Positions 2,489 through 63,265 of a stretch of 64,000 nucleotides of DNA are shown one piece after another (positions within the stretch are counted from its first letter, which is position 1; the number at the start of each line of letters is the position of its first letter). Made by a program: the position numbers and the translations under genes. Below the pieces are notes generated by a model. That model saw nothing but the letters and a program-made list of their open reading frames with translations, made no database searches and was not told where the DNA came from. The DNA is from an uncultured Bacteriovoracaceae bacterium (GTDB lineage Bacteria > Bdellovibrionota > Bacteriovoracia > Bacteriovoracales > Bacteriovoracaceae), in contig CATLOT010000003.1 of NCBI GenBank assembly GCA_950054155.1, positions 1 to 64,000 of the forward strand, in the 5' to 3' direction.

Positions 2489-5400
2489 GTGCTTAATAAA
2501 ATTATTTCATTCTCATTAAAAAATAGGCTCCTTGTCGTCTCTTTGGCTGCTTTTGTTGCGGTCTATGGGACTTTTACTCTTAAAGATCTTCCGGTTGATG
2601 TCTTTCCTAACCTTAATAAACCCAAAGTCACAATTATTACTGAAAGTCACGGGTTTGCTCCGGAAGAAGTTGAAACTCTCGTAACTCTGCCTCTTGAGAC
2701 CGCGATGATTGGCACGGCCGGTGTGACCAGAGTTCGCTCTTCAAGCGGAATGGGCATCAGTATTATTCATGTGGAGTTTGAGTGGGGAACTGACCCCTAT
2801 CGCAACAGACAGCTCGTCAGTGAAAAAATACAACAGGTGAAGTCTCGATTACCTGAGGATGTGATGCCTACCATGGCCCCTATATCTTCAATTATGGGAG
2901 AAATCCTTTTCTTAGGTCTTCAACTTGAAGAAGATTCTTCTTCAGAATCCTTAAGTCCACTAGAGTTAAGAGAAATAGCTGACTGGGTATTAAGGCCTCA
3001 GATTTTATCTATTCCCGGAGTGAGTAATGTAATCGTCATGGGAGGTGGAAGAAAGCAATTTCAAATTAGGGTTGATCACGAAAAACTCAGCCAAAAAAAT
3101 ATATCTCTGGAGGAGCTTGTAAAAAATGTAAAACACCTCAGTGAAAACACGACAGGCGGCTTTGTTGATAAAGACAAGAAAGAATTTCTTATTCGTGTCA
3201 TCGGCAGAGCTGAGATTGAAGAGGATCTCAGAGAGTCAATTGTGGGCATGCATCTTGGTGTACCAGTAAAACTTGAAGAAGTGGCCCAAGTGAAAATCGG
3301 TGCTCAACCAAAGAGAGGAGATGGTAGCATTAATGCAAGACCTGCTGTCATCATGACCATCCAAAAACAACCTGAAGCGTCCACCATTGAAGTGACAAAC
3401 AAAATTGAGGCCCTTGTAAAAAAAATCAAAACACAACTCCCCAAAGGAGTTATTCTTCATGACGACCTTTTTAAGCAGTCTAAATTCATTGAAAACTCTA
3501 TAGACAATGTAAAGGAAGCCTTAAGAGATGGTTCAATCATGGTGGCTATTGTTCTTTTTCTTTTTCTTTTAAACTTTAGAAGTACTTTTATTACTCTTAC
3601 GGCCATTCCTCTCTCCTTTCTTTTAACAACAATTATCTTTAAAAGCTTTGGCATGTCGGTAAATACGATGACTCTTGGAGGTCTAGCTATTGCCATTGGA
3701 GAATTAGTCGATGATGCCATTGTTGATGTGGAAAATGTTTTTAGAAGGCTAAGGGAAGCGAAGGAAAAAGGTGAATCCTTTAAGCCTCTTCACGTTGTTT
3801 ATGAGGCGTCAAAAGAAATAAGAAGTAGTATCGTTATCTCGACTATTATCGTTGTCTTGGTTTTTATTCCCCTATTTTATCTAAGTGGAATAGAAGGAAA
3901 GCTTTTTATTCCTTTAGGGATATCATACATCGTCTCATTACTAGCAAGTCTTCTCGTCTCTTTAACTGTCACACCAGTCTTATGCTCCTACCTCCTTCCT
4001 AATGCGAAAGTAATGGACCATGGTGATGGAAGACTTGTTAAACTCTTAAAAGAGATCGACAGAACTATCCTTCTTAAAATATTAGATCGGCCAAAGGTGG
4101 TCATTACTCTGTCCCTTATTCTTCTTGTAGGCTCTTTATCTTTACTTCCTCAAATGGGAAGAAACTTTCTGCCTAAGTTTAATGAAGGAACAGCTACAAT
4201 TGGTGTTGCAGCATGGCCAGGAATTTCACTAGAAGAATCTAACAAAGTTGGAAAAAAAGCTGAAGAACTTATGCTCTCAGTACCAGAAGTCAAAAGCACC
4301 ATTAGAAGAACCGGCCGCGCTGAAATGGATGAGCACGCTGAAGGAGTACACTGGAGCGAAATCGATGTGGATTTTCATGCTAACGGGCGAGACCGTGAAG
4401 TAGCACTTGAGGACATAAGAGAAAAACTTTCAACTATTGAAAATACTTATGCCAATATTGGCCAGCCGATTAGTCATCGGCTCGATCACCTTTTATCGGG
4501 TGTCAGAGCACAACTCGCGATAAAAATCTTTGGTCCAGAATTAAACACACTAAGACGTTTAGGAAAAAGTCTGGAGAAGAAGCTTCAAAATGTTAAAGGT
4601 TTAGCAGACCTGCAATTAGAGCAGCAAGTTTTGGTCCCTCAAATTAAAGTTCACCTCTATCGTGAAGATGCAGCAAAATTTGGCATTAAGATTAGTGATT
4701 TAGTAGAGCACTTAGAAGTAGCTCTCAATGGTATTGATGTAGGAAAGGTAATTGAGAGGCAGAGAATCTTTGATATCTCCTTACGCTTTAATGAAGAGAC
4801 GCGACAAGATTTAGACCTCCTTAAAGAAATCGTAGTAAGAGTTCTGCCTACCGGCGAAAGTATAAAGCTCAAACAAGTTGCTTCTGTTTATGAAAGCGAT
4901 GGTCCCAATATTATAAATCGAGAAAATGCTTCCAGACGTATCGTAATTCAAGCAAACTCTGGAGGAGCTCCTCTTGATGTCCTTGTCAAAGAAGTAAGAA
5001 AAGCCGTTAATGAACTTGAGCTCCCTAGCGGTTATCATGTGGAGCTTGGTGGTCAATTTAAAAGTGAAGAAGAGGCGTCTCGATTGATAACCTTTCTTGG
5101 TCTCATTTCCCTATTGGCCATCATTGTTTTTCTATATGCCCATTTCAATAGTATAATGATGAGTTTTCAAGTTTTAACTGCAATTCCTTTGGCCCTTATT
5201 GGAAGTATTGTTGGCATCTTTATCACAGAAAAGGTTCTTTCTGTTGCCACCTTGATAGCCTTTATTACTCTTTGTGGAATTGCGAGTAGAAATGGAGTCC
5301 TTATGATTTCCCACTATATTCATCTTCTTGTTAAAGAAGGACGAGAGTTTAACAAAGAAACAATTATCCAAGGCTCCCAAGAACGTCTGATTCCAGTTTT

Positions 5401-49739: not shown

Positions 49740-50750
49740 ATGGATGAAGAAGTCTTAGGCGAATTTAAAATTGAAGCGGAAGAGATGCTTGTCGAGTCTG
49801 AAGACTTTCTCCTCAATATTGATAGAGGGGAATCTTTTGAAGAAAACTTCAATGGTATTTTTCGTGCTTTTCACAGCCTAAAAGGGGCTGCGGGAATGTT
49901 TGAAATTGAGGATCTTCAAGCCTTTATGCATAAAATTGAAACTCAATTTGAATCCCTTCGAGATGAGGGCACGATGAGCTCTCTGCAAATTGATTATTTT
50001 CTCAAAGCAGTCGATAGTGCCCGTAAAATCTTAGATGGAGAAGACCCCATCGTCGATCCGGATTCATTTGATAGTCTAGGAGACCAAAATCCCGCCCCTC
50101 AAATACAGGAGCCTGCTCTAGAAGAAACCAAAGAAGAACCTAGAAAAGAAGAGACCCAAGAGAAAAAGAGTTCTGAAAGTCCAGCTATCACTAAGGCAAA
50201 AGAAAATGTCCAAAGAGCTCATGCCGACCTTGGTAAGGGCCATATCGTTATTGTCGATGATGAAGCTCCAATTTGTGACCTTCTCTCTTCAATTATTGAA
50301 AGCTATGGCTATAGCTGTACCACCTATACAGAACCTCTCAAAGCACTGGAGGCTATTACTGAAAATCCACCAACTCTGGTGTGCACAGACCTCAGTATGC
50401 CTAAACTAGACGGCTTAAGTCTTTTTAAGGCGATTCGACGCAACAAGGTGGATGTCCCTGTCATTTTTATTTCAGCCTTCGTCGACAATGAAGTTCTCAT
50501 TGAAGGGATTGAGCTTGGAGCTTCAGGCTTTCTCAGTAAACCCTTTGAAGACGCGCAAGTCATCTCTTTGATCAATCAGACGATAAAGAAAGAAGAGACG
50601 AGAAAACTCCTTAATCGCAGTCTCAACTTTATCCTCTATCAATTCAATGATCTGGATAATTACCTGCAAAAAGAAGGTAAGGAATCCCTTCGACAAAACT
50701 TAAAAAGTGAATTAAAAAATATTTTAAAATTAAAGAAGACTCTACTCTAG
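49740..50750 (+). CDS. HPt-receiver phosphorelay protein
   Basis: 336 residues. CheA-type HPt domain at the N-terminus with FRAFHSLKGAAGMF (phospho-His about 43), an acidic Glu/Lys-rich linker (115-160), and a receiver domain (HIVIVDDEAPI, phospho-Asp in LVCTDLSMPKLDG, Lys in LSKPFED). The tail after 285 is helical. It joins a phosphate donor and acceptor in one soluble protein without a kinase domain, so it must work with a separate kinase. Confidence 0.85.
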   Translation: MDEEVLGEFKIEAEEMLVESEDFLLNIDRGESFEENFNGIFRAFHSLKGAAGMFEIEDLQAFMHKIETQFESLRDEGTMSSLQIDYFLKAVDSARKILDGEDPIVDPDSFDSLGDQNPAPQIQEPALEETKEEPRKEETQEKKSSESPAITKAKENVQRAHADLGKGHIVIVDDEAPICDLLSSIIESYGYSCTTYTEPLKALEAITENPPTLVCTDLSMPKLDGLSLFKAIRRNKVDVPVIFISAFVDNEVLIEGIELGASGFLSKPFEDAQVISLINQTIKKEETRKLLNRSLNFILYQFNDLDNYLQKEGKESLRQNLKSELKNILKLKKTLL

Positions 50751-53656: not shown

Positions 53657-53925
53657 AAACCCAAAATTAGCCCAAGCTAATTCAAGAGTCCACGAGCATT
53701 AGAGTAATCATAGGCCTGCCTACCTTTTCCAATAAAATGTCCTTAGAGGCGTCGAAGGGATGTCAAATAGGTGGCTTCCTCTTAACAAAATCCTAATAAA
53801 AATCACTACTTTTTCGGCGTCGACATGAGTAATATGCGGGGAATTTTTACAATTGGGGGGGCTCTAATTGCGCGGCGTGTTTTCGTGGGCTATGGTCGCC
53901 TCATATTTAATATTGAGAGAGAATA
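53657..53925. other. Divergent spacer upstream of the nuclease operon
   Basis: Includes a T-rich stretch, a GGGGGGG run near 53856 and GC-rich leader sequence close to the first ATG. No clear sigma-70 or sigma-54 boxes or known riboswitch were found, though the promoter of a three- or four-gene operon must lie here. Confidence 0.4.
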
Positions 53926-55389
53926 ATGACCAAAATCCGAACATGCAGTAAATTCGTACTTGCTCTTGCGACCTTGAGCTCCACTGGCCTCCTTGCCCAG
54001 GACACCGTTTCTATTCAGAGAATGAAGAGGGCTGAGATCAATAAGGAAGTCCCTCAAGAGAGAAGCTTCTTCATCGAGACCTTCTACTATGAAGACTATG
54101 TCTACTCAAAGGGGAGAAAGACGCAACTTGGTGACCAAACGGAATTATCAGCTTCCCTACGCTACCAATGGTCTCCTGACACCTTCTTTAGAACTCGTTT
54201 TCAGACTTTCCCTGAAGACAACCGTTTTAACAATAAGACCAATCGCTTCGAACTCCTCGCCAATCATCAATATGGGAATGTTAACTTTCAACTGGATCTT
54301 GAAATTAACACCAATGAAAAGAACGATGATGGCACTTCTAATGGTGGCTCAACTCTTGGTCTTGATCTCGACTCAGAATTCTCTGTTATTGAGTGGCAAC
54401 TCAACGACCGCTTAAAGCTAAGCTTCTATCCCTTTAACTTTGATGGTGAAGTTGGTGTTGAATTCAACACTTGGGACGTTACAAGAATGTACTTTATCGA
54501 TGGCGGACAGGCTTCTTTTATTGGCTCTAATCCAGGGACAACAAAAGTCGCTCAAAAGACGATTCCTGGTCTTGAAGTTACTCTTGGTAGCTCACGCCTT
54601 AATTTCTATGCTGGTGTTGGTGCTGCGACATACCTCTATCCGACAAACCCCGACTTTGATATCCAATACAATACCACTGCCGTTCGTTGGGAGCGTAAAG
54701 AAAATATTGGTTACAAGTTTGGTGCAAACTACCTAAGTGAAACAACTCGTGCATCCTTCGCAGCTGTCGGTCATACCGAGGCCGATGAAACAGGCTCACT
54801 CCTTAAAAGAGCTGCTGCCTTTTATGGTATTCACCGATCCAATCGTCTGGTCTTTGAAGGTGAGACTGTTGTGAGTACTGCCGGTAAGAACGCCTGGCGC
54901 TTAAACCGCGCTAACACTTGGTTTGAGCAAACAACCTTTCCAACTTATCAGCCTGTCTATTCTGACTACAATGGGACCCGCCAAAACTGGCTTGGAAAAA
55001 CAGACTTCGCTCTTAGCTTCAGAATGGGGATGCAAATGAGTGACACGTGGACACCCTACTATGCACTTCGCTACCAAGGTGAACACTTCGTCTACAGTGA
55101 CCCCGAGTCTGCCCATATTTTAAGAACTGCTGATGAATCTAAGTCCCATGGCGGCCTTCACAGAATCGCGGTTGGCTCTTTCCTCGATTATGGCAACTTT
55201 GTCGTCAATCCTGAACTTGAATACAGAAAAGCGAATAACCCTGTTTTTACTAATGCTGATGATGCCGTTGATATTTCGAGCTCAAATTATCAAGGACAAC
55301 GCCTCCAGGCTAAGTTCTCTGAAGATGATGTCGTTCTCAAAATACAACTTACATATAGTTTTGATGGCAGTAAGCCCTTTACTCCCTAA
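53926..55389 (+). CDS. Outer-membrane beta-barrel protein
   Basis: 487 residues with a signal peptide ending near GLLAQ (residue 25). Many alternating strands (LSASLRYQWS, FQLDLEINTN, RLNFYAGVG) and a final strand ending ...QLTYSF. Most likely a porin-like barrel. It is first in a tight operon with a repeat lipoprotein (20-base gap) and a secreted nuclease (1-base gap), suggesting a secretion or uptake unit for nucleic-acid breakdown products. No named family recognised. Confidence 0.72.
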   Translation: MTKIRTCSKFVLALATLSSTGLLAQDTVSIQRMKRAEINKEVPQERSFFIETFYYEDYVYSKGRKTQLGDQTELSASLRYQWSPDTFFRTRFQTFPEDNRFNNKTNRFELLANHQYGNVNFQLDLEINTNEKNDDGTSNGGSTLGLDLDSEFSVIEWQLNDRLKLSFYPFNFDGEVGVEFNTWDVTRMYFIDGGQASFIGSNPGTTKVAQKTIPGLEVTLGSSRLNFYAGVGAATYLYPTNPDFDIQYNTTAVRWERKENIGYKFGANYLSETTRASFAAVGHTEADETGSLLKRAAAFYGIHRSNRLVFEGETVVSTAGKNAWRLNRANTWFEQTTFPTYQPVYSDYNGTRQNWLGKTDFALSFRMGMQMSDTWTPYYALRYQGEHFVYSDPESAHILRTADESKSHGGLHRIAVGSFLDYGNFVVNPELEYRKANNPVFTNADDAVDISSSNYQGQRLQAKFSEDDVVLKIQLTYSFDGSKPFTP

Positions 55390-55409
55390 TCAAACTAAGG
55401 AATGTTATT

Positions 55410-57452
55410 ATGAAGTCATTTAAAGTCCTACTTTCCTTCCTCACCCTTGTGCTCTTTGTGGCAGGATGTGGAGATGAGGAAACGACGCCAGTTTCTACTT
55501 ATAATGACACTCAGGTAGAGGGTCTTATTGAACAGGTTACGGATATCAATTATCTCATTGAGTCCAACCAGGTGCTTCGAAATGCTAGTTTTCGTGACAA
55601 GGAGATTTTAAGATCTTCTCTTCATAGTATTCAGGTTAATTCAGCAATTCTCGATGAAGTCCCAACAGACTCATCGGCTTTGCAAAGACTAAACTCAGCT
55701 CTTAAAGACATTCAAAACCTCTATTTAACAGAGAGAGACCAGGAGAGAATCGCTCCCATCTTTCAAAGAGCAACTCGAATTCTTGCAAAATTCGCACAAA
55801 TTCAAAACTCAAACCTTGCTGATCTTCGTTGGTCAATTTTCTCTTACCGCTTTTCAGATGGTCTTGGAGACTTCACAAACCTCGTTGAAAACTCAACCTG
55901 GAAAGTACGCTACGTTCAACAAGAGCGCTACCTTGCGAACTTTGGAAGCGGAACTCCTGCCACGGCCGTAATGGTCAGTCCCATTTACGACCTCACTAAA
56001 GTAAAAAATCTTGCCTACTCGATCCGTCACAATATTGGCGTCGAAGATGATCTTGGAAGTGAAACGACACGATCAGAAGTCATGAACAACACCTTTAAGG
56101 TGATGGTTTCAACCACCTATGAAAAAGGTGAAGAATTTGACATGGCCAAGTTTAAAAGATTACCCATGGGTCCGATCCCGACAGGGCTTAACTTTGACAC
56201 TGTCGACTCTGGAATCATCGATCTCAGTGCCTATGCAGGTCTTAAGAATGTAACCTTTGCTATTGTCTACGATAATAAGAAACGCTTTGAAAGATTTAGC
56301 TGGGTGAGTTGGTCTATTGAGAGATTTAATCTCTATGGTCTTACAGACTCTCCCCTTCCCTATGTATCAGCGTATGTTCCCCCCATTCCTTCTTCTTGGA
56401 GTTATGAATTTGGTGAGCAAGGTTTTGACAATCTTGGGCAAATTACAGTTGAAGGTACTCCAGGAGAATTTGTCCTTGGTGAGCACAACGGTAATAAGTT
56501 CATGAAGATGCAAAATCAAAACGCAAGAGGAACGAAGCTACTCTTTTCAGCACCTCTCGATCTTAAAGATCTTGTGAGCCCCTCTGTTCAACTTGAGCAT
56601 ACTATCAACTTCTATGAAGGCGACGCCATTACCAATAAAGACGTCAAAATGATGGCCGCTGAATATCAAGAAGGCGTTAGTCCAAAAGACCTCAATTGGA
56701 TTACTCTTGACTTTGAAACGGGTCCTGAAGGTAATAGCTGGAATGTTTTTAAATCAGAGGACCTTCCGCTTCCTGATGAACTTAAAGGAAAAGTTATTCG
56801 TCTCGGCTGGTCTCATACCGCCCGCGATGGCAGCACTCCTGTATGGCAGATGATCTCCACTAATATTAAAGACCTTGAAGAGTCAGGGGCAACGGTCACT
56901 GTTCTTGAAGACGACTTCACCACGACTCCAACAATTGATCCAGCTGCGTTAACGTGGACCTATGATTTTGGTGCTCAAGGTCTCTCAGAGCTGACACAAA
57001 TCGCTCTTGAAGGCGAACCAGCGCAATTCACTGAGGGAGCTCATAATGGTGTTTCTTTTGTGAAGATGCAGGCACGAGATGTCATTGGCACTCAGCTTCT
57101 CTATACGAAGGCAATTGATCTCGCTGGAAACACAATGCCCTCTCTTCAGTTCACTCACACAATCAACTTCTACAAAGGTGAGTTCAAAGAGCAAAATGAT
57201 GTCAAAGTAGTTGTTGCTCTTGATCAAGAAGGAGTAGAAGCAAAGGACCTAAATTGGGAGATGATTTCTTTTCAAGAAGGGCCAACAGGTAGTGATTGGA
57301 ATGTCTATACGACTGAAGACTTTAAACTTGATGCAAAATACATGGGTAAGAAAATCCGCATTGGCCTTTCTCACACATCAAGAGAAGGCAGTACCCCTGT
57401 GTGGCAAATCCTTTCAGCCAATATTAAAGATTTAAGCTTAGTAGGTAATTAA
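55410..57452 (+). CDS. Lipoprotein with tandem jelly-roll-like repeats
   Basis: 680 residues with lipobox LFVAGC (Cys about 20). Residues ~140-320 hold a diverged domain and ~328-500 and ~513-678 two close copies: each begins W-[ST]-Y-[ED]-F-G-x-Q-G, contains EHTINFY or THTINFY, DLNW, and ends GSTPVWQ. These resemble cleaved-adhesin/choice-of-anchor carbohydrate-binding jelly rolls. It lies between a barrel protein and a nuclease in one operon, and may hold the nuclease or its substrate at the cell surface. Confidence 0.72.
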   Translation: MKSFKVLLSFLTLVLFVAGCGDEETTPVSTYNDTQVEGLIEQVTDINYLIESNQVLRNASFRDKEILRSSLHSIQVNSAILDEVPTDSSALQRLNSALKDIQNLYLTERDQERIAPIFQRATRILAKFAQIQNSNLADLRWSIFSYRFSDGLGDFTNLVENSTWKVRYVQQERYLANFGSGTPATAVMVSPIYDLTKVKNLAYSIRHNIGVEDDLGSETTRSEVMNNTFKVMVSTTYEKGEEFDMAKFKRLPMGPIPTGLNFDTVDSGIIDLSAYAGLKNVTFAIVYDNKKRFERFSWVSWSIERFNLYGLTDSPLPYVSAYVPPIPSSWSYEFGEQGFDNLGQITVEGTPGEFVLGEHNGNKFMKMQNQNARGTKLLFSAPLDLKDLVSPSVQLEHTINFYEGDAITNKDVKMMAAEYQEGVSPKDLNWITLDFETGPEGNSWNVFKSEDLPLPDELKGKVIRLGWSHTARDGSTPVWQMISTNIKDLEESGATVTVLEDDFTTTPTIDPAALTWTYDFGAQGLSELTQIALEGEPAQFTEGAHNGVSFVKMQARDVIGTQLLYTKAIDLAGNTMPSLQFTHTINFYKGEFKEQNDVKVVVALDQEGVEAKDLNWEMISFQEGPTGSDWNVYTTEDFKLDAKYMGKKIRIGLSHTSREGSTPVWQILSANIKDLSLVGN

Positions 57453-57453
57453 G

Positions 57454-60126
57454 ATGAGAAACTTGGCCCAACTCCTAATCCTTCTCTTAGTCCTTGCTTC
57501 ATGTGGCGAGAGCTCTCAGATGCAGACTGAGGATACTTTTATCTCTACCCTTAAGGGTTTTGAAGTAAAAGTCACCGATAAGGGGACGGCCAAAATATAC
57601 TCATCCACTAGTGCCGGAAACCTTATGGCGACGGCAATCAAAGAGGTCTATGACCTCGATGTTGTTCTCTACCCTCAAGCCCTAATCAATGATAATAATT
57701 ACGGCTTTGCTCATCCTAATTTAACGAGTAATGAACTCAACTACCTTCTTGATATCTATCCAAAGAATGGTAATAAAGACCAATTCATGATTGGGTTAAT
57801 GGATGGGGCTGCTATTAAAAAACTTATCCGTACCCGTGTTCAAGATACTTTTAATCTCGACGTAGAGGTAGCCGGCCTTGTCTACAATATCAATCTCGTT
57901 GCCGGTGTTCTTCAAAACGCGTCCTTTGAGCTTGATGACGGACGTACTTTTGATGACAAGACCACTTATCGAATTGCTATCAATCAGCACTTCTTCTTTT
58001 CAGGTGAAACCTTCCCTTCTTATAAGTTTAGAAATGGACTTAACTTTAGTTTTGTGAGAAGTGGTGTTCGCTTCTCAGCAAGAGACGCTCTTACACAATA
58101 TCTTCTTACAACTAAGACCTTTCCCTGGCTTGATAATAAGCGAGGAATGGTGATTGATTATGAACTCAATGATGCCGGTCGCTTTAAGACTTACCAAATT
58201 CAAAGTGATCGTCACCGCTCTCCTCTCTGGGGAAAAAAGGTAACGACAACTGGTATTGTCACGGCCCTGTCTAATGTTGAATGGTATCCAAGAGGTATTG
58301 ACCTCATCATCCAAGATCCCCAAGGCGATGGACGAGTTGAAACTTCAGACGCTCTTCATATCCACTTGGACGCAGATGCTAGTGATGTGCAAATTGGTGA
58401 TGAGATTGAAGTCTCTGGAACAGTTTGGGAGCGCATGACTCTTGATGCTGAACAGAATATGTCTAAAACAGTCATTCGCAATGTGACTAACTTAAAAATC
58501 ATCTCAAGTGGAAATGAATTGCCTGAGCCGGTTCTTCTTGGCTTTGATGGGCGTCAGATTCCTGATCAAGTTCTCTCTACCTTTAAAGGTAATCTTAACT
58601 TTAAGACCTACCTGACCATGACCGATGGTATCGACTTTTGGGAGTCTCTTGAAGGAATGCGCGTAAAGATTAGAAATCCCCGTGTTACCGGTTTTAGAGG
58701 AGGCCACGAAGAGCTTGCTCGCCAAAGTGTTCAGCGCTACATCACCCTTTATATCCTTCCTGATGGAAAGAGAAGAGAATATAAAACCACTTACGCTGGT
58801 GGAGTAAGAGAAGACTTTATGCTTGGTGACTATAGTCCCGAAGTCCTTCACCTCTCTACAGGTAATCTATCGGCACAAGATATTATTAGTGAGGAAGACT
58901 ACTATAATGTGGGCGACATTATTGAAGCGGATATCGTCGGTAACATTAGTTATGAGATGAATCTCTTTGGTGGTGGTGAGTACACTTTTGTCATGCCTGT
59001 TAAAGAGCAATCCTTTACAAGCAATAATATCTTAAGACGTAAGCCAAACTTCCCTGAAAATACAGGTGAGATTGATTGTGAAAGTGTTGATCCTAATAAA
59101 ACCCATTGGCCACTCGAGTGCCGTCCTCGTACCACTTTAAAAGGTGAAGGAAATAAGCTCACTGTTGCGACCTTTAATCTCAAAAACCTCTCTTCAAATG
59201 AAGATGGGTCCATTGATTATGGTAACGAAAGGATGAGTGAAATCGGTAAATCGATCAGCTTTAATCTGCAGTGCCCTGACATCGTCAATCTTGTGGAAGT
59301 TCAAGATGATAATGGACAAGACCTTCAAGGCGGAACAGGAGCAGAGCGGACGCTTGAGAAAATCATTGAGGCCTCTGAATGTGATAAAGAAGGTGTCCTC
59401 TATAAATCAGTTAATATCGACCCCATCAATCACAGTGAAGGTGGTCAGCCGGGTGGTAATATTCGAGTCTCAATCATTTATAATAGTGCGCGTGTAGGAT
59501 TTACGCCAAAATTTGATGAGCGTTACAACGGCAATATCCTTAATCGTGAATTACGTGAGACGACTGTCACAGCTTCTGGTGATCTTTCAGTAAATCCAGG
59601 GCGAATCTTTCCCCTATCTTCAGAATTTAGAAATACTAGAAAGAGTATTGTGGCCCAATTTAGTTTTCGTGGTGAAAAGGTCTTTATTATCGGGAATCAC
59701 CTCAACTCAAAGCTTGGCGACAGCTCGTTCTGGGGAGAGCGTCAACCTCCCTATATTAAGTCTGATGAGAAACGTCATGCTACGGCCACTCTTCTCGCCC
59801 AGTTTGTGAGAATTCTCGATTTGAGAAATGATCAAAAAGCTAATGTTATCGTTCTTGGTGACTTCAATGCTCACTATAACGAGCGCTCAATGACAGCACT
59901 GAGTAATAATGGTGATCTTACAAACCTAATGTTTGTTGATGCCCTCACACCTGCTGAAGAAAGATACACTCACAATTACAATGGAGAATCTAGTGCCATT
60001 GACTTTATCTTTGCTTCTAAAGGTCTTATGACAAAAGATCCTAAGTGTGAGCCTATTCATATTAACTCTGACTACATGGGACGTCTCTCTGACCACGACC
60101 CTGTAATGGCCCAATTTAGCTTTTGA
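57454..60126 (+). CDS. Large secreted nuclease (5'-nucleotidase-like, OB and EEP domains)
   Basis: 890 residues with a lipobox-like LASC (about Cys17). Order: a domain resembling the 5'-nucleotidase C-terminal domain (~30-215), an OB-fold-like segment (GIVTALSNV to EVSGTVWE, ~265-330), a middle domain, and an endonuclease/exonuclease/phosphatase domain (~560-890) with ATFNLKNLS, a VEVQ Glu, GNHLNS, LGDFNAH and SDHDPV. All catalytic residues of the EEP fold are visible. Similar to secreted ExeM/XDS-type DNases that free phosphate and nucleosides from extracellular DNA. One base separates it from the repeat lipoprotein. Confidence 0.8.
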   Translation: MRNLAQLLILLLVLASCGESSQMQTEDTFISTLKGFEVKVTDKGTAKIYSSTSAGNLMATAIKEVYDLDVVLYPQALINDNNYGFAHPNLTSNELNYLLDIYPKNGNKDQFMIGLMDGAAIKKLIRTRVQDTFNLDVEVAGLVYNINLVAGVLQNASFELDDGRTFDDKTTYRIAINQHFFFSGETFPSYKFRNGLNFSFVRSGVRFSARDALTQYLLTTKTFPWLDNKRGMVIDYELNDAGRFKTYQIQSDRHRSPLWGKKVTTTGIVTALSNVEWYPRGIDLIIQDPQGDGRVETSDALHIHLDADASDVQIGDEIEVSGTVWERMTLDAEQNMSKTVIRNVTNLKIISSGNELPEPVLLGFDGRQIPDQVLSTFKGNLNFKTYLTMTDGIDFWESLEGMRVKIRNPRVTGFRGGHEELARQSVQRYITLYILPDGKRREYKTTYAGGVREDFMLGDYSPEVLHLSTGNLSAQDIISEEDYYNVGDIIEADIVGNISYEMNLFGGGEYTFVMPVKEQSFTSNNILRRKPNFPENTGEIDCESVDPNKTHWPLECRPRTTLKGEGNKLTVATFNLKNLSSNEDGSIDYGNERMSEIGKSISFNLQCPDIVNLVEVQDDNGQDLQGGTGAERTLEKIIEASECDKEGVLYKSVNIDPINHSEGGQPGGNIRVSIIYNSARVGFTPKFDERYNGNILNRELRETTVTASGDLSVNPGRIFPLSSEFRNTRKSIVAQFSFRGEKVFIIGNHLNSKLGDSSFWGERQPPYIKSDEKRHATATLLAQFVRILDLRNDQKANVIVLGDFNAHYNERSMTALSNNGDLTNLMFVDALTPAEERYTHNYNGESSAIDFIFASKGLMTKDPKCEPIHINSDYMGRLSDHDPVMAQFSF

Positions 60127-61184
60127 ATAGTGTTGAAAAGAAATTAAAGGAGCTTCTTAATTGCAGAAGCTTCTCTTTCTCAAACAATCCAAGCTTTGAC
60201 CAAGAGGCGAACCTCTCTTGCAATTGCGCGGGTTTCATTACCCTGCTCTTAAAAGCGACCAAACGCTTTCCTCAAGAACTCCCGCAAAATCCTCGTGCTT
60301 TTGAATACTTTGATTATGCTAAGGACAATAGTCCAAAGACTCATATTTCATCCCTCGCTCCCTATGACTGCCTCATGTGGCGAAAACACAACATCCCTCT
60401 CACCGGTGGTGATAGCGGTCATATCCTTATCCTTAAAAATCTTCCAACTCTTAAAGAGAGAACCCATGATCATCATGTCTATGAGGTAGATATCTACGAT
60501 GTCACTCGCAGCAATTTAGAAGGTCCCTCTCAGCGTAAAATTGCTCTGCACACTGACCCTCAGGGGAATTTGATCGGTGTTCAGTGGAATCTCAAGGAGC
60601 CTAAGGTTAAGAGAACTCCCCTTATTGCTCTTTCCTTTTTTAAACGCACAACCTGCAAACACTGCTCCTTTGTTCCTGAGCGCTGTCTCTGTGATGCTCT
60701 TCCAAAAGAGAGGACACACGCCCCTGATATTGTCATTTTACGCCACCCTCACGAAAAGAATCACGCATTTGCTTCCGCCCATCTTCTTGATCTCTTTTTT
60801 AAGAATCAAGTTATTAGCGATGGAGAAGTCTTTGATTCAAGAGAAGGCACTCTTGTCTATCCCTACCACGTTGATCTGACCTCTAGCGAGGAGATTAATA
60901 TTTGTGAAGCAAAAGGTCCCCTTATTCTTCTTGATGGTACTTGGAAGAAGACTAAGAAAATCCTTCATAAGAACCCATGGTTGCAGGCCCTACCCCGTTT
61001 GAAAGTTGGCGATTTGAGCGAAGGAGAATTCTCTCTAAGAAAGACTCCCTCTCAAGGAAAACTTAGCACTCTTGAGACCTATCTCCATGTGTGGCGCCTT
61101 AAGGAAAACTCCCCCAAACAGGAGGAGCTTGAAAAGCTCTTTAAGACTTATATGCTGAAGCAGCAGTCTCTCTATTCTTCTTGA
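60123..61184 (+). CDS. NlpC/P60-like domain fused to a DTW (TapT) domain
   Basis: 353 residues starting with TTG at 60123, which overlaps the nuclease stop (TTGA). N-terminal ~160 residues carry a papain-like pattern: CNCAGFITLLLKA (Cys nucleophile) and GGDSGHILIL (His), like NlpC/P60 amidases. The rest is a DTW domain: zinc-type CKHC...RCLC, LILLDGTWKKTKK and LRKTPSQGKLSTLET; DTW proteins add aminocarboxypropyl to tRNA uridine. Fusion of a possible cysteine hydrolase with a tRNA modification enzyme is unusual. The alternative is a shifted function for both domains. Confidence 0.65.
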   Translation: MNSVEKKLKELLNCRSFSFSNNPSFDQEANLSCNCAGFITLLLKATKRFPQELPQNPRAFEYFDYAKDNSPKTHISSLAPYDCLMWRKHNIPLTGGDSGHILILKNLPTLKERTHDHHVYEVDIYDVTRSNLEGPSQRKIALHTDPQGNLIGVQWNLKEPKVKRTPLIALSFFKRTTCKHCSFVPERCLCDALPKERTHAPDIVILRHPHEKNHAFASAHLLDLFFKNQVISDGEVFDSREGTLVYPYHVDLTSSEEINICEAKGPLILLDGTWKKTKKILHKNPWLQALPRLKVGDLSEGEFSLRKTPSQGKLSTLETYLHVWRLKENSPKQEELEKLFKTYMLKQQSLYSS

Positions 61185-63265
61185 AGCATTTGATCGACCC
61201 AAGACTCAAGGGCCTCATCATCAACATCAATATCCACAGACTCTAGTCTCACTTCCCCATCTTCTTCAGAAAGGACGGTCTCCGTTTTCACACCAGCTTC
61301 ACTAACTCCTTCAAAGGTATCGAGAACCTTACCATCAGGAGAAATTCCTCGCTCGTGCTCTAAGGTAACTCCTGCGGAAAAGAGTCCTGTCATAAAGGGA
61401 AAGAGTTTCGCCTGATAAATAACGAGATAATCCCAACTATTATAAAGGAGGAGCGCTTTAAAGGCCGCAAAATCGAGTCCTGTTTGCAAGAGCCAAGAAC
61501 TTCCTTTGAGTTTCGTCTTTCTCTCAATAATTTGAGCAAGCCTTGGAAGAATTTTGTGGCGAAGGGGATTGATGATCGCCATCTGCTTAAAGCCCATCCA
61601 TACACCGTGATAGAGATAGGTCACAGGTAAGAGGACAAGCATATTATTAAGATCAAGTGGCTTCGCTATGGCGTGTCCCATGGCCAGAAGAAAGCTGTCC
61701 ATTCCATAGGTCATGGTCATGAGACCGACACTACTTATAACACCTTTAAAGGCGATACCTTGCCAATTCTTAAACCAGCGAGCGTAGCGCTTGCCTTTAG
61801 AAGTAAAGACTTCGCTCTTAGGAAGCGGATCTCCAAAAGGTAGGGCGCTTTTAAAGCTTGCTCGACAATTGGCCTCAGCCAGGATGGGCGCGAAAACGGC
61901 ACCATTAACAAGAATTTCATAAGGAAAGCGCTGATACTCTTCTGGGTTATTACGATAGTGCCAATAAAGAGTAGCCCATACGATCCCAACATCCATAACG
62001 AGGGATTTCATCACGAGAGGATTATGCGCTAAACAAGAAAGACTATCTTTATAGTACTTTGCCCTAAAGAACCTCTTCCATGATTGAGTCGTTCTGTTCA
62101 TAACACACTCAAGTGATTCACACTCCGGCGCTTCTTGCTTAAAGATTGGAAGCCAAGACTTTACTTTCTCCACAACGCCCTTGGCATCATCTGCTTTTGG
62201 TGGTGGCGCTAAGTTTTGAAAAGGAGCATACTCCTTGTAACTTTGTCTTAGAAAGTCTCCAAGCTTAAGTTCAAAGCCTTCTTTCTGAGCTAAGTTTAAG
62301 GCATCCTTCATTTTAGCGCGGTTTAATTTCTCTTCTTTAAAGAGCCATACAAGAAAATCGTTTGAACGAAAGTTTGGTTCGAGATCCCCAAAGGTCTTAA
62401 GAAGGAGTAGTGCTTCTGAGCGTAATTCATCAGCACTTGTCTCAAAGGTTAAGGTTTTATCTGCTAATTCATTATATTGCTTCAGGGCTGACTCTTTGCC
62501 GGAGAACTCAAGATTGGTTTTCTCTGCCTTACTCATTGCTCTGTAAGCTTTTCTAAATTCCTCTTTCTTTCTTCTATAAAGCGATTCAAATTTCTGATCT
62601 CTAAAATCATCAAACTCAATATTCTTTTGGGCCCACCATCCAAAGGCCTGAAGTTCTTCACGGTCTGAATAACTAAGATCCTCAGTAAAGTCTTTGTAAG
62701 CAATATATCTTCTAAATTCGATATTCTTCTTTTCGTACTGACTAACTGACTCTTCACCTCTACTTATAAGAGGTCGCATCATTTCAAGACGTTCTTGGTG
62801 ATTATTAGAGACAACTGGTCTTCTCACTTGAGAATAGAGAGTGATAAATTCTTCAGAAACTTCTTTAAATTCTCCTCTCAAACGAGAAAAGTCAGAATGA
62901 CCATCAGCGACTTTTTCGCTATAGCGAGTGTAGATTGCTCTTAAGCGCAACCAACTTGAGTCGAGTTCTTCTGAGCCAAGTTGAGAAACGTCTTCTTGTA
63001 AACGGTCCACCATGCTTCTTAGCGCTTCCTGTCCATCGTCGTTTCCAAACTTATCAGCAACCTCAGATACCTCTTTCTTAAGCTGACGCGTGACCTTTGT
63101 ATTTTTAAAAAGATTATCAAGAATACTAAAGCAGCCCTTTTGAGAGCTTTGGGCAGGAGTACGATTTGCAGCAACTTCGACTTCACTAACCATAGGCCGA
63201 TGAGCACAGCTAAAAGAGAAGATCAAAAGAAGGCATAAGAGTGTGATTTGATTGACAGTTTTCAT
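61172..63265 (-). CDS. Large lipoprotein with C-terminal membrane region
   Basis: 697 residues with lipobox FSFSC (Cys about 20). Residues 40-400 are charged, helical and probably coiled; from ~420 there are about five hydrophobic segments, as in integral membrane proteins, and the tail is very acidic (EDGEVRLESVDIDVDDEAL). A lipoprotein signal with later membrane helices is an odd mix. No family recognised. It overlaps the convergent DTW gene by 13 bases. Confidence 0.6.
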   Translation of the reverse strand: MKTVNQITLLCLLLIFSFSCAHRPMVSEVEVAANRTPAQSSQKGCFSILDNLFKNTKVTRQLKKEVSEVADKFGNDDGQEALRSMVDRLQEDVSQLGSEELDSSWLRLRAIYTRYSEKVADGHSDFSRLRGEFKEVSEEFITLYSQVRRPVVSNNHQERLEMMRPLISRGEESVSQYEKKNIEFRRYIAYKDFTEDLSYSDREELQAFGWWAQKNIEFDDFRDQKFESLYRRKKEEFRKAYRAMSKAEKTNLEFSGKESALKQYNELADKTLTFETSADELRSEALLLLKTFGDLEPNFRSNDFLVWLFKEEKLNRAKMKDALNLAQKEGFELKLGDFLRQSYKEYAPFQNLAPPPKADDAKGVVEKVKSWLPIFKQEAPECESLECVMNRTTQSWKRFFRAKYYKDSLSCLAHNPLVMKSLVMDVGIVWATLYWHYRNNPEEYQRFPYEILVNGAVFAPILAEANCRASFKSALPFGDPLPKSEVFTSKGKRYARWFKNWQGIAFKGVISSVGLMTMTYGMDSFLLAMGHAIAKPLDLNNMLVLLPVTYLYHGVWMGFKQMAIINPLRHKILPRLAQIIERKTKLKGSSWLLQTGLDFAAFKALLLYNSWDYLVIYQAKLFPFMTGLFSAGVTLEHERGISPDGKVLDTFEGVSEAGVKTETVLSEEDGEVRLESVDIDVDDEALESWVDQMLQEE

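What the first reader, a model, noticed from the sequence alone, without database searches (positions are those of the whole stretch)
53926..61184. Candidate surface system for nucleic-acid digestion and uptake
A barrel protein, a lipoprotein with three jelly-roll-like domains, an 890-residue multi-domain nuclease and a fused NlpC/P60-DTW protein are joined by gaps of 20, 1 and minus 4 bases. This tight order suggests a cell-surface machine: barrel for export or uptake, repeat protein for binding, nuclease for cutting. I know of no described system with this composition.
Basis: partly seen in the sequence, partly recalled or inferred. Interest (0 to 1): 0.75.

Follow-up and report, generated by a model that had tools for sequence, protein, structure and literature searches.

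The report
Predatory-bacterium porin–lipoprotein–nuclease operon

Summary
In detail: four ORFs with gaps of +20, +1 and -4. Genes 1-3 are a real unit. In 369 Bdellovibrionota genomes the barrel and the nuclease occur in exactly the same 33 genomes (17 genera, 3 families) and never alone. Wherever the contig is long enough the order is barrel, lipoprotein, nuclease on one strand, while flanking genes change. The barrel is a plug-less, porin-like channel without a Pfam family. The lipoprotein is a helical stalk plus three jelly-roll (MAM/DUF5017-like) modules, one to four in relatives. The nuclease is a lipoprotein of the ExeM/NucH type with intact catalytic residues, plus an N-terminal 5'-nucleotidase-C-like domain that its matches on plasmids of other phyla lack. 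Gene 4 (papain-like + DTW) is not part of it: the fusion exists only in this genus, lacks a signal peptide, and its halves are separate genes elsewhere. I infer a nucleic-acid scavenging module at the outer membrane: nuclease cuts, jelly-roll protein tethers or captures, porin admits products. Surface exposure, complex formation and transport are not shown. A DNA-uptake (transformation) role like the Riemerella barrel/choice-of-anchor-J pair is less likely. New composition of known part types.

The parts
53842..53853 (+). AATTTTTACAAT element upstream of the barrel gene, kept in all seven members of the genus (possible promoter or regulator site)
   Evidence: upstream sequences listed; no match to a Pho box above shuffles; no consensus sigma-70 promoter here
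53926..55389 (+). outer-membrane barrel, 487 aa, porin-like, Sec signal peptide (about residues 1-25), no plug; core gene 1
   Evidence: no Pfam match to P0001 at E<=5
55410..57452 (+). lipoprotein, 680 aa, lipobox FVAGC (Cys20 invariant in 22 of 22 homologues); core gene 2
55509..55802 (+). helical N-terminal domain of the lipoprotein (residues 34-131)
   Evidence: DSSP of AlphaFold model
55830..56342 (+). jelly-roll module 1 (residues 141-311), MAM/DUF5017-like
   Evidence: one row matches this module; DUF5017 4.6e-4 in a homologue
56391..56873 (+). jelly-roll module 2 (residues 328-488)
56949..57431 (+). jelly-roll module 3 (residues 514-674), 51% identical to module 2
57454..60126 (+). ExeM/NucH-like nuclease lipoprotein, 890 aa, lipobox VLASC (Cys17); core gene 3
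57598..58017 (+). 5'-nucleotidase C-terminal-like domain (residues 49-188); absent from the matches found on plasmids of other phyla
   Evidence: Pfam 5_nucleotid_C in 10 of 10 homologues, best E 4.6e-8, P0003 itself just below cut-off; alignments to other phyla begin at residue 245 or later; no match to solved 5'-nucleotidases
58189..58692 (+). ExeM-type N-terminal core (nucleic-acid-binding OB region by homology; residues 246-413)
   Evidence: aligned to PDB 9sf9 residues 3-160
59128..60123 (+). endonuclease/exonuclease/phosphatase catalytic domain (residues 559-890); N575, E615, H749, D803, N805, D850, D880, H881 present in all 19 homologues
60123..61184 (+). NOT part of the conserved unit: papain-like (CHAP/NlpC/P60-type) + DTW (tRNA aminocarboxypropyltransferase-like) fusion, probably cytoplasmic, co-transcribed passenger of this genus

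Best explanation
Genes 1-3 are one operon that builds a nucleic-acid scavenging module in the outer membrane of a subset of Bdellovibrionota. Shown: exclusive co-occurrence, fixed order, envelope signals, a porin-like barrel, a helical stalk plus jelly-roll lipoprotein, and a nuclease lipoprotein of ExeM type with all catalytic residues present. Inferred: the two lipoproteins sit on the outer membrane (outer face), the jelly-roll protein captures nucleic acid or tethers the nuclease over the barrel mouth, the nuclease (Ca/Mg-dependent, sugar-nonspecific by analogy with ExeM) cuts extracellular or prey DNA/RNA to short oligonucleotides or nucleotides, and the dedicated plug-less porin lets these products diffuse into the periplasm. 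The 5'-nucleotidase-C-like domain probably binds or positions nucleotide ends; it lacks the metallophosphatase catalytic half. Gene 4 is only a transcriptional neighbour.
For: Barrel HMM and nuclease HMM hit exactly the same 33 of 369 genomes, with neither alone. Order and strand are kept in all loci with enough contig, with gaps near zero and different flanking genes outside the genus. Distance matrices correlate: barrel-nuclease r 0.92, lipoprotein-nuclease 0.91, barrel-lipoprotein 0.81 (shared ancestry contributes). Lipobox Cys invariant in the lipoprotein (22/22) and in the 10 nucleases of A3. Porin fold without plug: maltoporin, PorB, OmpT, OccK all Z 14-16. Catalytic residues present in 19/19. 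ExeM is a sugar-nonspecific endonuclease that stays with the cell and is raised under phosphate starvation (PMC6085458). Radiotracer work shows Bdellovibrio uses intact nucleoside monophosphates from prey (cited in PMC7529429), so a surface nuclease plus porin has a plausible physiological use.
Against: No experiment shows surface exposure, a complex, or a transport substrate. Shewanella ExeM itself fractionates with the inner membrane (PMC6085458). The cassette is in only about 9% of the phylum's genomes, so it is not needed for predation. No Pho box was found. Ordinary porins pass only small solutes, and a porin match at Z 14-16 fixes the fold class, not the substrate. Jelly-roll modules of this type bind glycans or proteins as often as anything else. 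A Bdellovibrio double mutant of two other exported nucleases still degraded prey DNA (PMC3593177).
Confidence: 0.5

Rival explanations
1. The barrel is not for uptake: it is an outer-membrane anchor or display partner that holds the jelly-roll protein and the nuclease at the surface, and the module acts on extracellular DNA (biofilm matrix, prey DNA released at lysis, escape from DNA-rich debris).
For: Surface nucleases of the ExeM/Xds kind act in biofilm formation and dispersal (PMC6085458; PMC6746945, listed); Bdellovibrio nuclease mutants have biofilm phenotypes, not predation phenotypes (PMC3593177); jelly-roll modules vary from 1 to 4, as in adhesion or spacer proteins.
Against: The barrel is as conserved as the nuclease (mean identity 0.48 v 0.46) and porin-like rather than a filled anchor; the ExeM-like nucleases looked at elsewhere do without a barrel.
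Confidence: 0.22
2. Periplasmic version: the lipoproteins face the periplasm, the porin admits oligonucleotides made by other enzymes, and the nuclease finishes them or destroys incoming foreign DNA.
For: Lipoproteins of Gram-negative bacteria face the periplasm by default (general knowledge); ExeM of Shewanella was found in the cytoplasmic membrane fraction (PMC6085458).
Against: It does not explain the multi-module jelly-roll lipoprotein, a build typical of extracellular binding proteins.
Confidence: 0.15
3. DNA-uptake port for natural transformation, analogous to the Riemerella anatipestifer pair RA0C_RS04915 (outer-membrane barrel) and RA0C_RS04920 (DUF5689 + DUF5017, choice-of-anchor J), both essential for transformation.
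For: Same two part types (OM barrel + MAM/DUF5017-like protein) encoded side by side (PMC8459023); DUF5017 is the best Pfam match of the lipoprotein family (4.6e-4); a nuclease could convert dsDNA to ssDNA.
Against: The barrel is a plug-less porin, not a TonB-receptor-type barrel; no DUF5689 in the window's genome; no ComEC hit in the window's genome or the six other genus members, although ComEC matches in this family are weak throughout, so absence is not proof; an active DNase next to the port would tend to destroy transforming DNA.
Confidence: 0.07
4. A four-component surface machine, with the papain-like/DTW fusion as a working part.
For: Gene 4 overlaps the nuclease stop by 4 bases, so it is very likely co-transcribed in this genus; kept next to the trio in all seven genus members.
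Against: Absent next to the trio in every other genus; the fusion itself exists only in this genus and its halves are separate genes elsewhere in the phylum; no signal peptide; DTW is a tRNA-modification domain (matches 9kyt, tRNA-uridine aminocarboxypropyltransferase).
Confidence: 0.03

Closest known systems
ExeM (Shewanella oneidensis) / Xds (Vibrio cholerae) / NucH family extracellular nucleases, NCBIfam NF033681
   Same: OB-type N-terminal core plus C-terminal EEP domain, catalytic residues present; 9sf9-like core aligned over residues 246-890
   Different: lipoprotein anchor instead of LTD domain and GlyGly-CTERM; extra 5'-nucleotidase-C-like N-domain; always encoded with its own porin and jelly-roll lipoprotein; scores below the family cut-off
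Riemerella anatipestifer RA0C_RS04915/RA0C_RS04920 transformation pair (PMC8459023)
   Same: outer-membrane barrel encoded next to an extracytoplasmic protein with a DUF5017/choice-of-anchor-J-type beta-sandwich; proposed to handle DNA at the outer membrane
   Different: Riemerella barrel has a carboxypeptidase-regulatory-like domain typical of TonB-dependent receptors and its partner a DUF5689 domain; neither is found here; no nuclease is described with the pair
Bacteroidota SusCD-type utilisomes and BtuB-BtuG (PMC10404256, seen as abstract)
   Same: logic of an outer-membrane channel plus dedicated surface lipoproteins that capture and process a substrate
   Different: TonB-dependent plugged barrel there; plug-less porin-like barrel here; no sequence relation seen
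General and substrate-specific porins (maltoporin, PorB, OccK, Omp32)
   Same: same barrel architecture (Z 14-16)
   Different: about 10% identity; no Pfam porin family matched; always linked to a nuclease
Bacillus subtilis YhcR-type nucleases (from memory) and 5'-nucleotidases
   Same: combination of OB-type, nuclease and 5'-nucleotidase-type domains in one extracytoplasmic enzyme
   Different: here EEP instead of SNase, and only the C-terminal 5'-nucleotidase half, without the metallophosphatase

Membership tests
ExeM/NucH extracellular nuclease family (NF033681) | score over NCBI's family cut-off (300 bits) | tested here: not met
   115.7 bits, E 2.7e-33: a relative, not a member by this criterion
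ExeM/NucH extracellular nuclease family (NF033681) | C-terminal EEP domain with complete catalytic set | tested here: met
   Exo_endo_phos E 2.4e-12; N575, E615, H749, D803, N805, D880, H881 in 19/19
ExeM/NucH extracellular nuclease family (NF033681) | N-terminal LTD domain and C-terminal GlyGly-CTERM anchor (as in Shewanella/Vibrio members) | tested here: not met
   no LTD in Pfam scans; P0003 ends ...DPVMAQFSF with no hydrophobic tail
ExeM/NucH extracellular nuclease family (NF033681) | nuclease activity in vitro | not testable with these tools
   needs protein
Riemerella barrel/choice-of-anchor-J transformation pair | DUF5689 domain in the partner of the barrel | tested here: not met
   no DUF5689 in the 10 lipoprotein homologues, none in the whole genome; one nuclease homologue at E 0.1 only
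Riemerella barrel/choice-of-anchor-J transformation pair | DUF5017/choice-of-anchor-J beta-sandwich | tested here: inconclusive
   P0002 E 0.15, best homologue 4.6e-4; fold class agrees
Riemerella barrel/choice-of-anchor-J transformation pair | barrel with carboxypeptidase-regulatory-like (TonB-receptor-type) domain | tested here: not met
   no such Pfam match in 10 barrels
Riemerella barrel/choice-of-anchor-J transformation pair | ComEC available for inner-membrane transport | tested here: inconclusive
   no PF03772 hit in the window's genome (99.9% complete) or its genus; hits weak in the rest of the family, so sensitivity is doubtful
SusCD-type utilisome | TonB-dependent plugged barrel and SusD-like lipoprotein | tested here: not met
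   no TonB_dep_Rec, Plug or SusD match in Pfam at E<=1 to 5
Porin (general fold class) | single-chain transmembrane beta-barrel of porin architecture spanning residues ~41-480 | tested here: met
   fold class only, model pLDDT 77.6
DTW tRNA-uridine aminocarboxypropyltransferase (gene 4) | DTW domain over Pfam cut-off | tested here: met
   105.8 bits v 33.7; PDB 9kyt E 5e-11
NlpC/P60 / CHAP (gene 4 N-domain) | match over Pfam cut-off | tested here: inconclusive
   best sub-threshold: NLPC_P60 20.1 bits v 23, CHAP 20.2 v 26 in stand-alone relatives

The most novel reading that the evidence does not exclude
A previously undescribed outer-membrane 'nucleic-acid utilisome' that is TonB-independent: a dedicated plug-less porin bound by a modular jelly-roll lipoprotein and a surface ExeM-type nuclease, used by predatory-type bacteria to cut and take in prey or environmental DNA/RNA as nucleotides.
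Probability: 0.3. Interest if true: 0.7.

Novelty: new variant of a known kind. Interest (0 to 1): 0.52.

Why it matters
How predatory Bdellovibrionota take up intact nucleotides from prey has been known biochemically since the 1970s-80s, and I know of no assigned outer-membrane route. A nuclease of this type that is never found without its own porin in this phylum gives a concrete, testable candidate, and it would extend the utilisome idea (channel plus surface lipoproteins) beyond TonB-dependent transporters and Bacteroidota.

Tried and rejected
Gene 4 as a component: rejected. Pho-box control: best sites no better than shuffles. Internal promoters or terminators that would split the operon: promoter-like sites fewer than in shuffles, and no + strand terminator-like site lies at a gene junction of the trio. 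Mobile-element origin: no barrel match on plasmids, no nuclease match in phages. Search for solved relatives of the barrel by sequence: nothing useful. Search for solved 5'-nucleotidases with the N-domain profile: none, so that assignment rests on Pfam only. DUF5689 in the nuclease's middle part: only one member at E 0.1. One alignment failed on coordinates. The structural match list for the lipoprotein is dominated by its third module; Cry, reelin and Eph matches are taken as fold class only. Literature: no paper found on this gene order.

Full report
OBSERVATION. Family scans give no Pfam family for the barrel, a sub-threshold DUF5017 for the lipoprotein, EEP nuclease domains plus a weak 5_nucleotid_C for gene 3, and DTW for gene 4.

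IS IT A UNIT? In a first set of 59 relatives the barrel and the nuclease each hit the same 10 genomes. The neighbourhoods show barrel, lipoprotein, nuclease in that order on one strand in all of them. With profile HMMs over 369 genomes of the phylum, the barrel and the full-length nuclease (the 11 further genomes score under 40 bits) occur in exactly the same 33 genomes, in families f1, f6 and f11; 336 have neither. Extracted loci keep the order throughout, as far as each contig reaches; two lipoproteins missed by the HMM are there on reading the frames. 23 named loci from a scan of 84,980 species are all Bdellovibrionota or unclassified relatives (Halobacteriovorax, Bacteriovorax sp. DB6_IX, Bdellovibrionales MAGs); 22 carry the trio as far as the contig reaches, and the contig of the last, L117, ends inside the barrel gene. 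That scan used two peptide patterns, so more distant barrels outside the phylum cannot be excluded. Flanking genes differ outside the genus, so the conserved unit is the trio. Distance matrices correlate at r 0.81-0.92, which shared descent also gives.

GENE 4. The papain-like/DTW fusion sits next to the trio in all seven genomes of the window's genus only. Elsewhere in the phylum the DTW half (about 200 aa) and the N-terminal half (about 185 aa) are separate genes. It has no signal peptide and DTW enzymes modify tRNA (PDB 9kyt). I class it as a co-transcribed passenger.

PARTS. Barrel: AlphaFold2 with 22 homologues gives a porin-like barrel (pTM 0.80); best structural matches maltoporin (Z 16.0, rmsd 4.2, 292 aligned), PorB, OmpT, OccK channels. 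There is no plug and no TonB-receptor domain. Lipoprotein: lipobox Cys invariant in 22/22; helical domain 34-131, then three jelly-rolls, structurally MAM/Eph-LBD/CBM-like and by profile related to a carbohydrate-binding domain (8jiy, 7e-5) and the MAM part of InhA (4yu5, 0.002). Module number ranges from one to four between species (the module HMM was built from the same set). Nuclease: lipoprotein; EEP catalytic residues present in 19/19; residues 246-890 align to 9sf9. Homologues on plasmids of other phyla match from residue 245 or later only, and the three looked at are encoded without barrel or jelly-roll neighbour. The N-terminal addition matches 5_nucleotid_C in 10/10 homologues, without the metallophosphatase half; it found no solved 5'-nucleotidase.

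MECHANISM. Shown: co-occurrence, order, export signals in the sequence, predicted folds, complete active-site residues. Inferred: outer-membrane surface location, assembly into a complex, capture by the jelly-roll protein, cutting of DNA/RNA outside, entry of products through the porin. ExeM, the nearest studied enzyme, is a cell-associated, sugar-nonspecific Ca/Mg endonuclease raised by phosphate starvation (PMC6085458). Bdellovibrio uses intact nucleoside monophosphates from prey (work cited in PMC7529429), and two of its other exported nucleases are dispensable for digesting prey DNA (PMC3593177). I give the scavenging model 0.5.

RIVALS. Surface display for eDNA work without uptake (0.22); periplasmic orientation (0.15); a transformation port like the Riemerella RA0C_RS04915/04920 pair (PMC8459023) (0.07). 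The last is weakened by the different barrel type, the lack of DUF5689 and no ComEC hit in the window's genome, but ComEC detection is weak in this family, so this is not decisive.

NOVELTY. Each part type is known; the obligate trio with a plug-less porin was not found described in the papers searched. I file it as a new variant of a known kind: not an ExeM/NucH member by NCBI's cut-off, not a Riemerella-type pair, not a SusCD system, though it may work like one.

Noticed in passing
60123-61184; L130-L137: Genus-specific fusion of a papain-like (CHAP/NlpC/P60-type) protein with a DTW tRNA-modification enzyme; both halves are separate genes in other Bdellovibrionota. A cytoplasmic papain-like domain fused to a tRNA-modifying enzyme is odd in itself.
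   Followed up: partly
53842-53853 and upstream of the barrel in L095-L099, L109: A conserved AATTTTTACAA(T) element upstream of the barrel gene in all seven genus members, possibly promoter or regulator site; not the Pho box.
   Followed up: partly
L033:15647-16528, L034:13946-14827, L035:18127-19026, L037:13707-14588: A gene that reads like a LysR-type regulator is divergently transcribed right upstream of the trio in four genus members, but not in the window or L032.
   Followed up: no
L096, L097, L098, L099, L109 (nuclease): The nuclease of five genus members has a cysteine-containing insertion after residue about 474, and three also have a C-terminal extension of roughly 140 aa of unknown type.
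   Followed up: no
lipoprotein homologues in L095-L116: Number of jelly-roll modules varies from one to four between species while the helical N-domain stays.
   Followed up: yes
49740-50750 and L032:2727-3167, 3402-3782: A 336-aa Hpt-receiver-like protein in the window corresponds to two separate ORFs in the closest relative; genuine split or assembly error not resolved.
   Followed up: no
61172-63265: A 697-aa convergent ORF overlaps the end of gene 4 by 13 bases and stays next to it in the genus; function unknown.
   Followed up: no
L101, L102: Second trio copies on short contigs in two MAGs (Halobacteriovorax bin.43 and GY13CL_bin.21) look nearly the same; real paralogues or cross-binning is open.
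   Followed up: partly
whole genome G000: No ComEC (PF03772) and no DUF5689 was found in the 99.9%-complete genome of the window; ComEC matches are weak throughout this family.
   Followed up: partly
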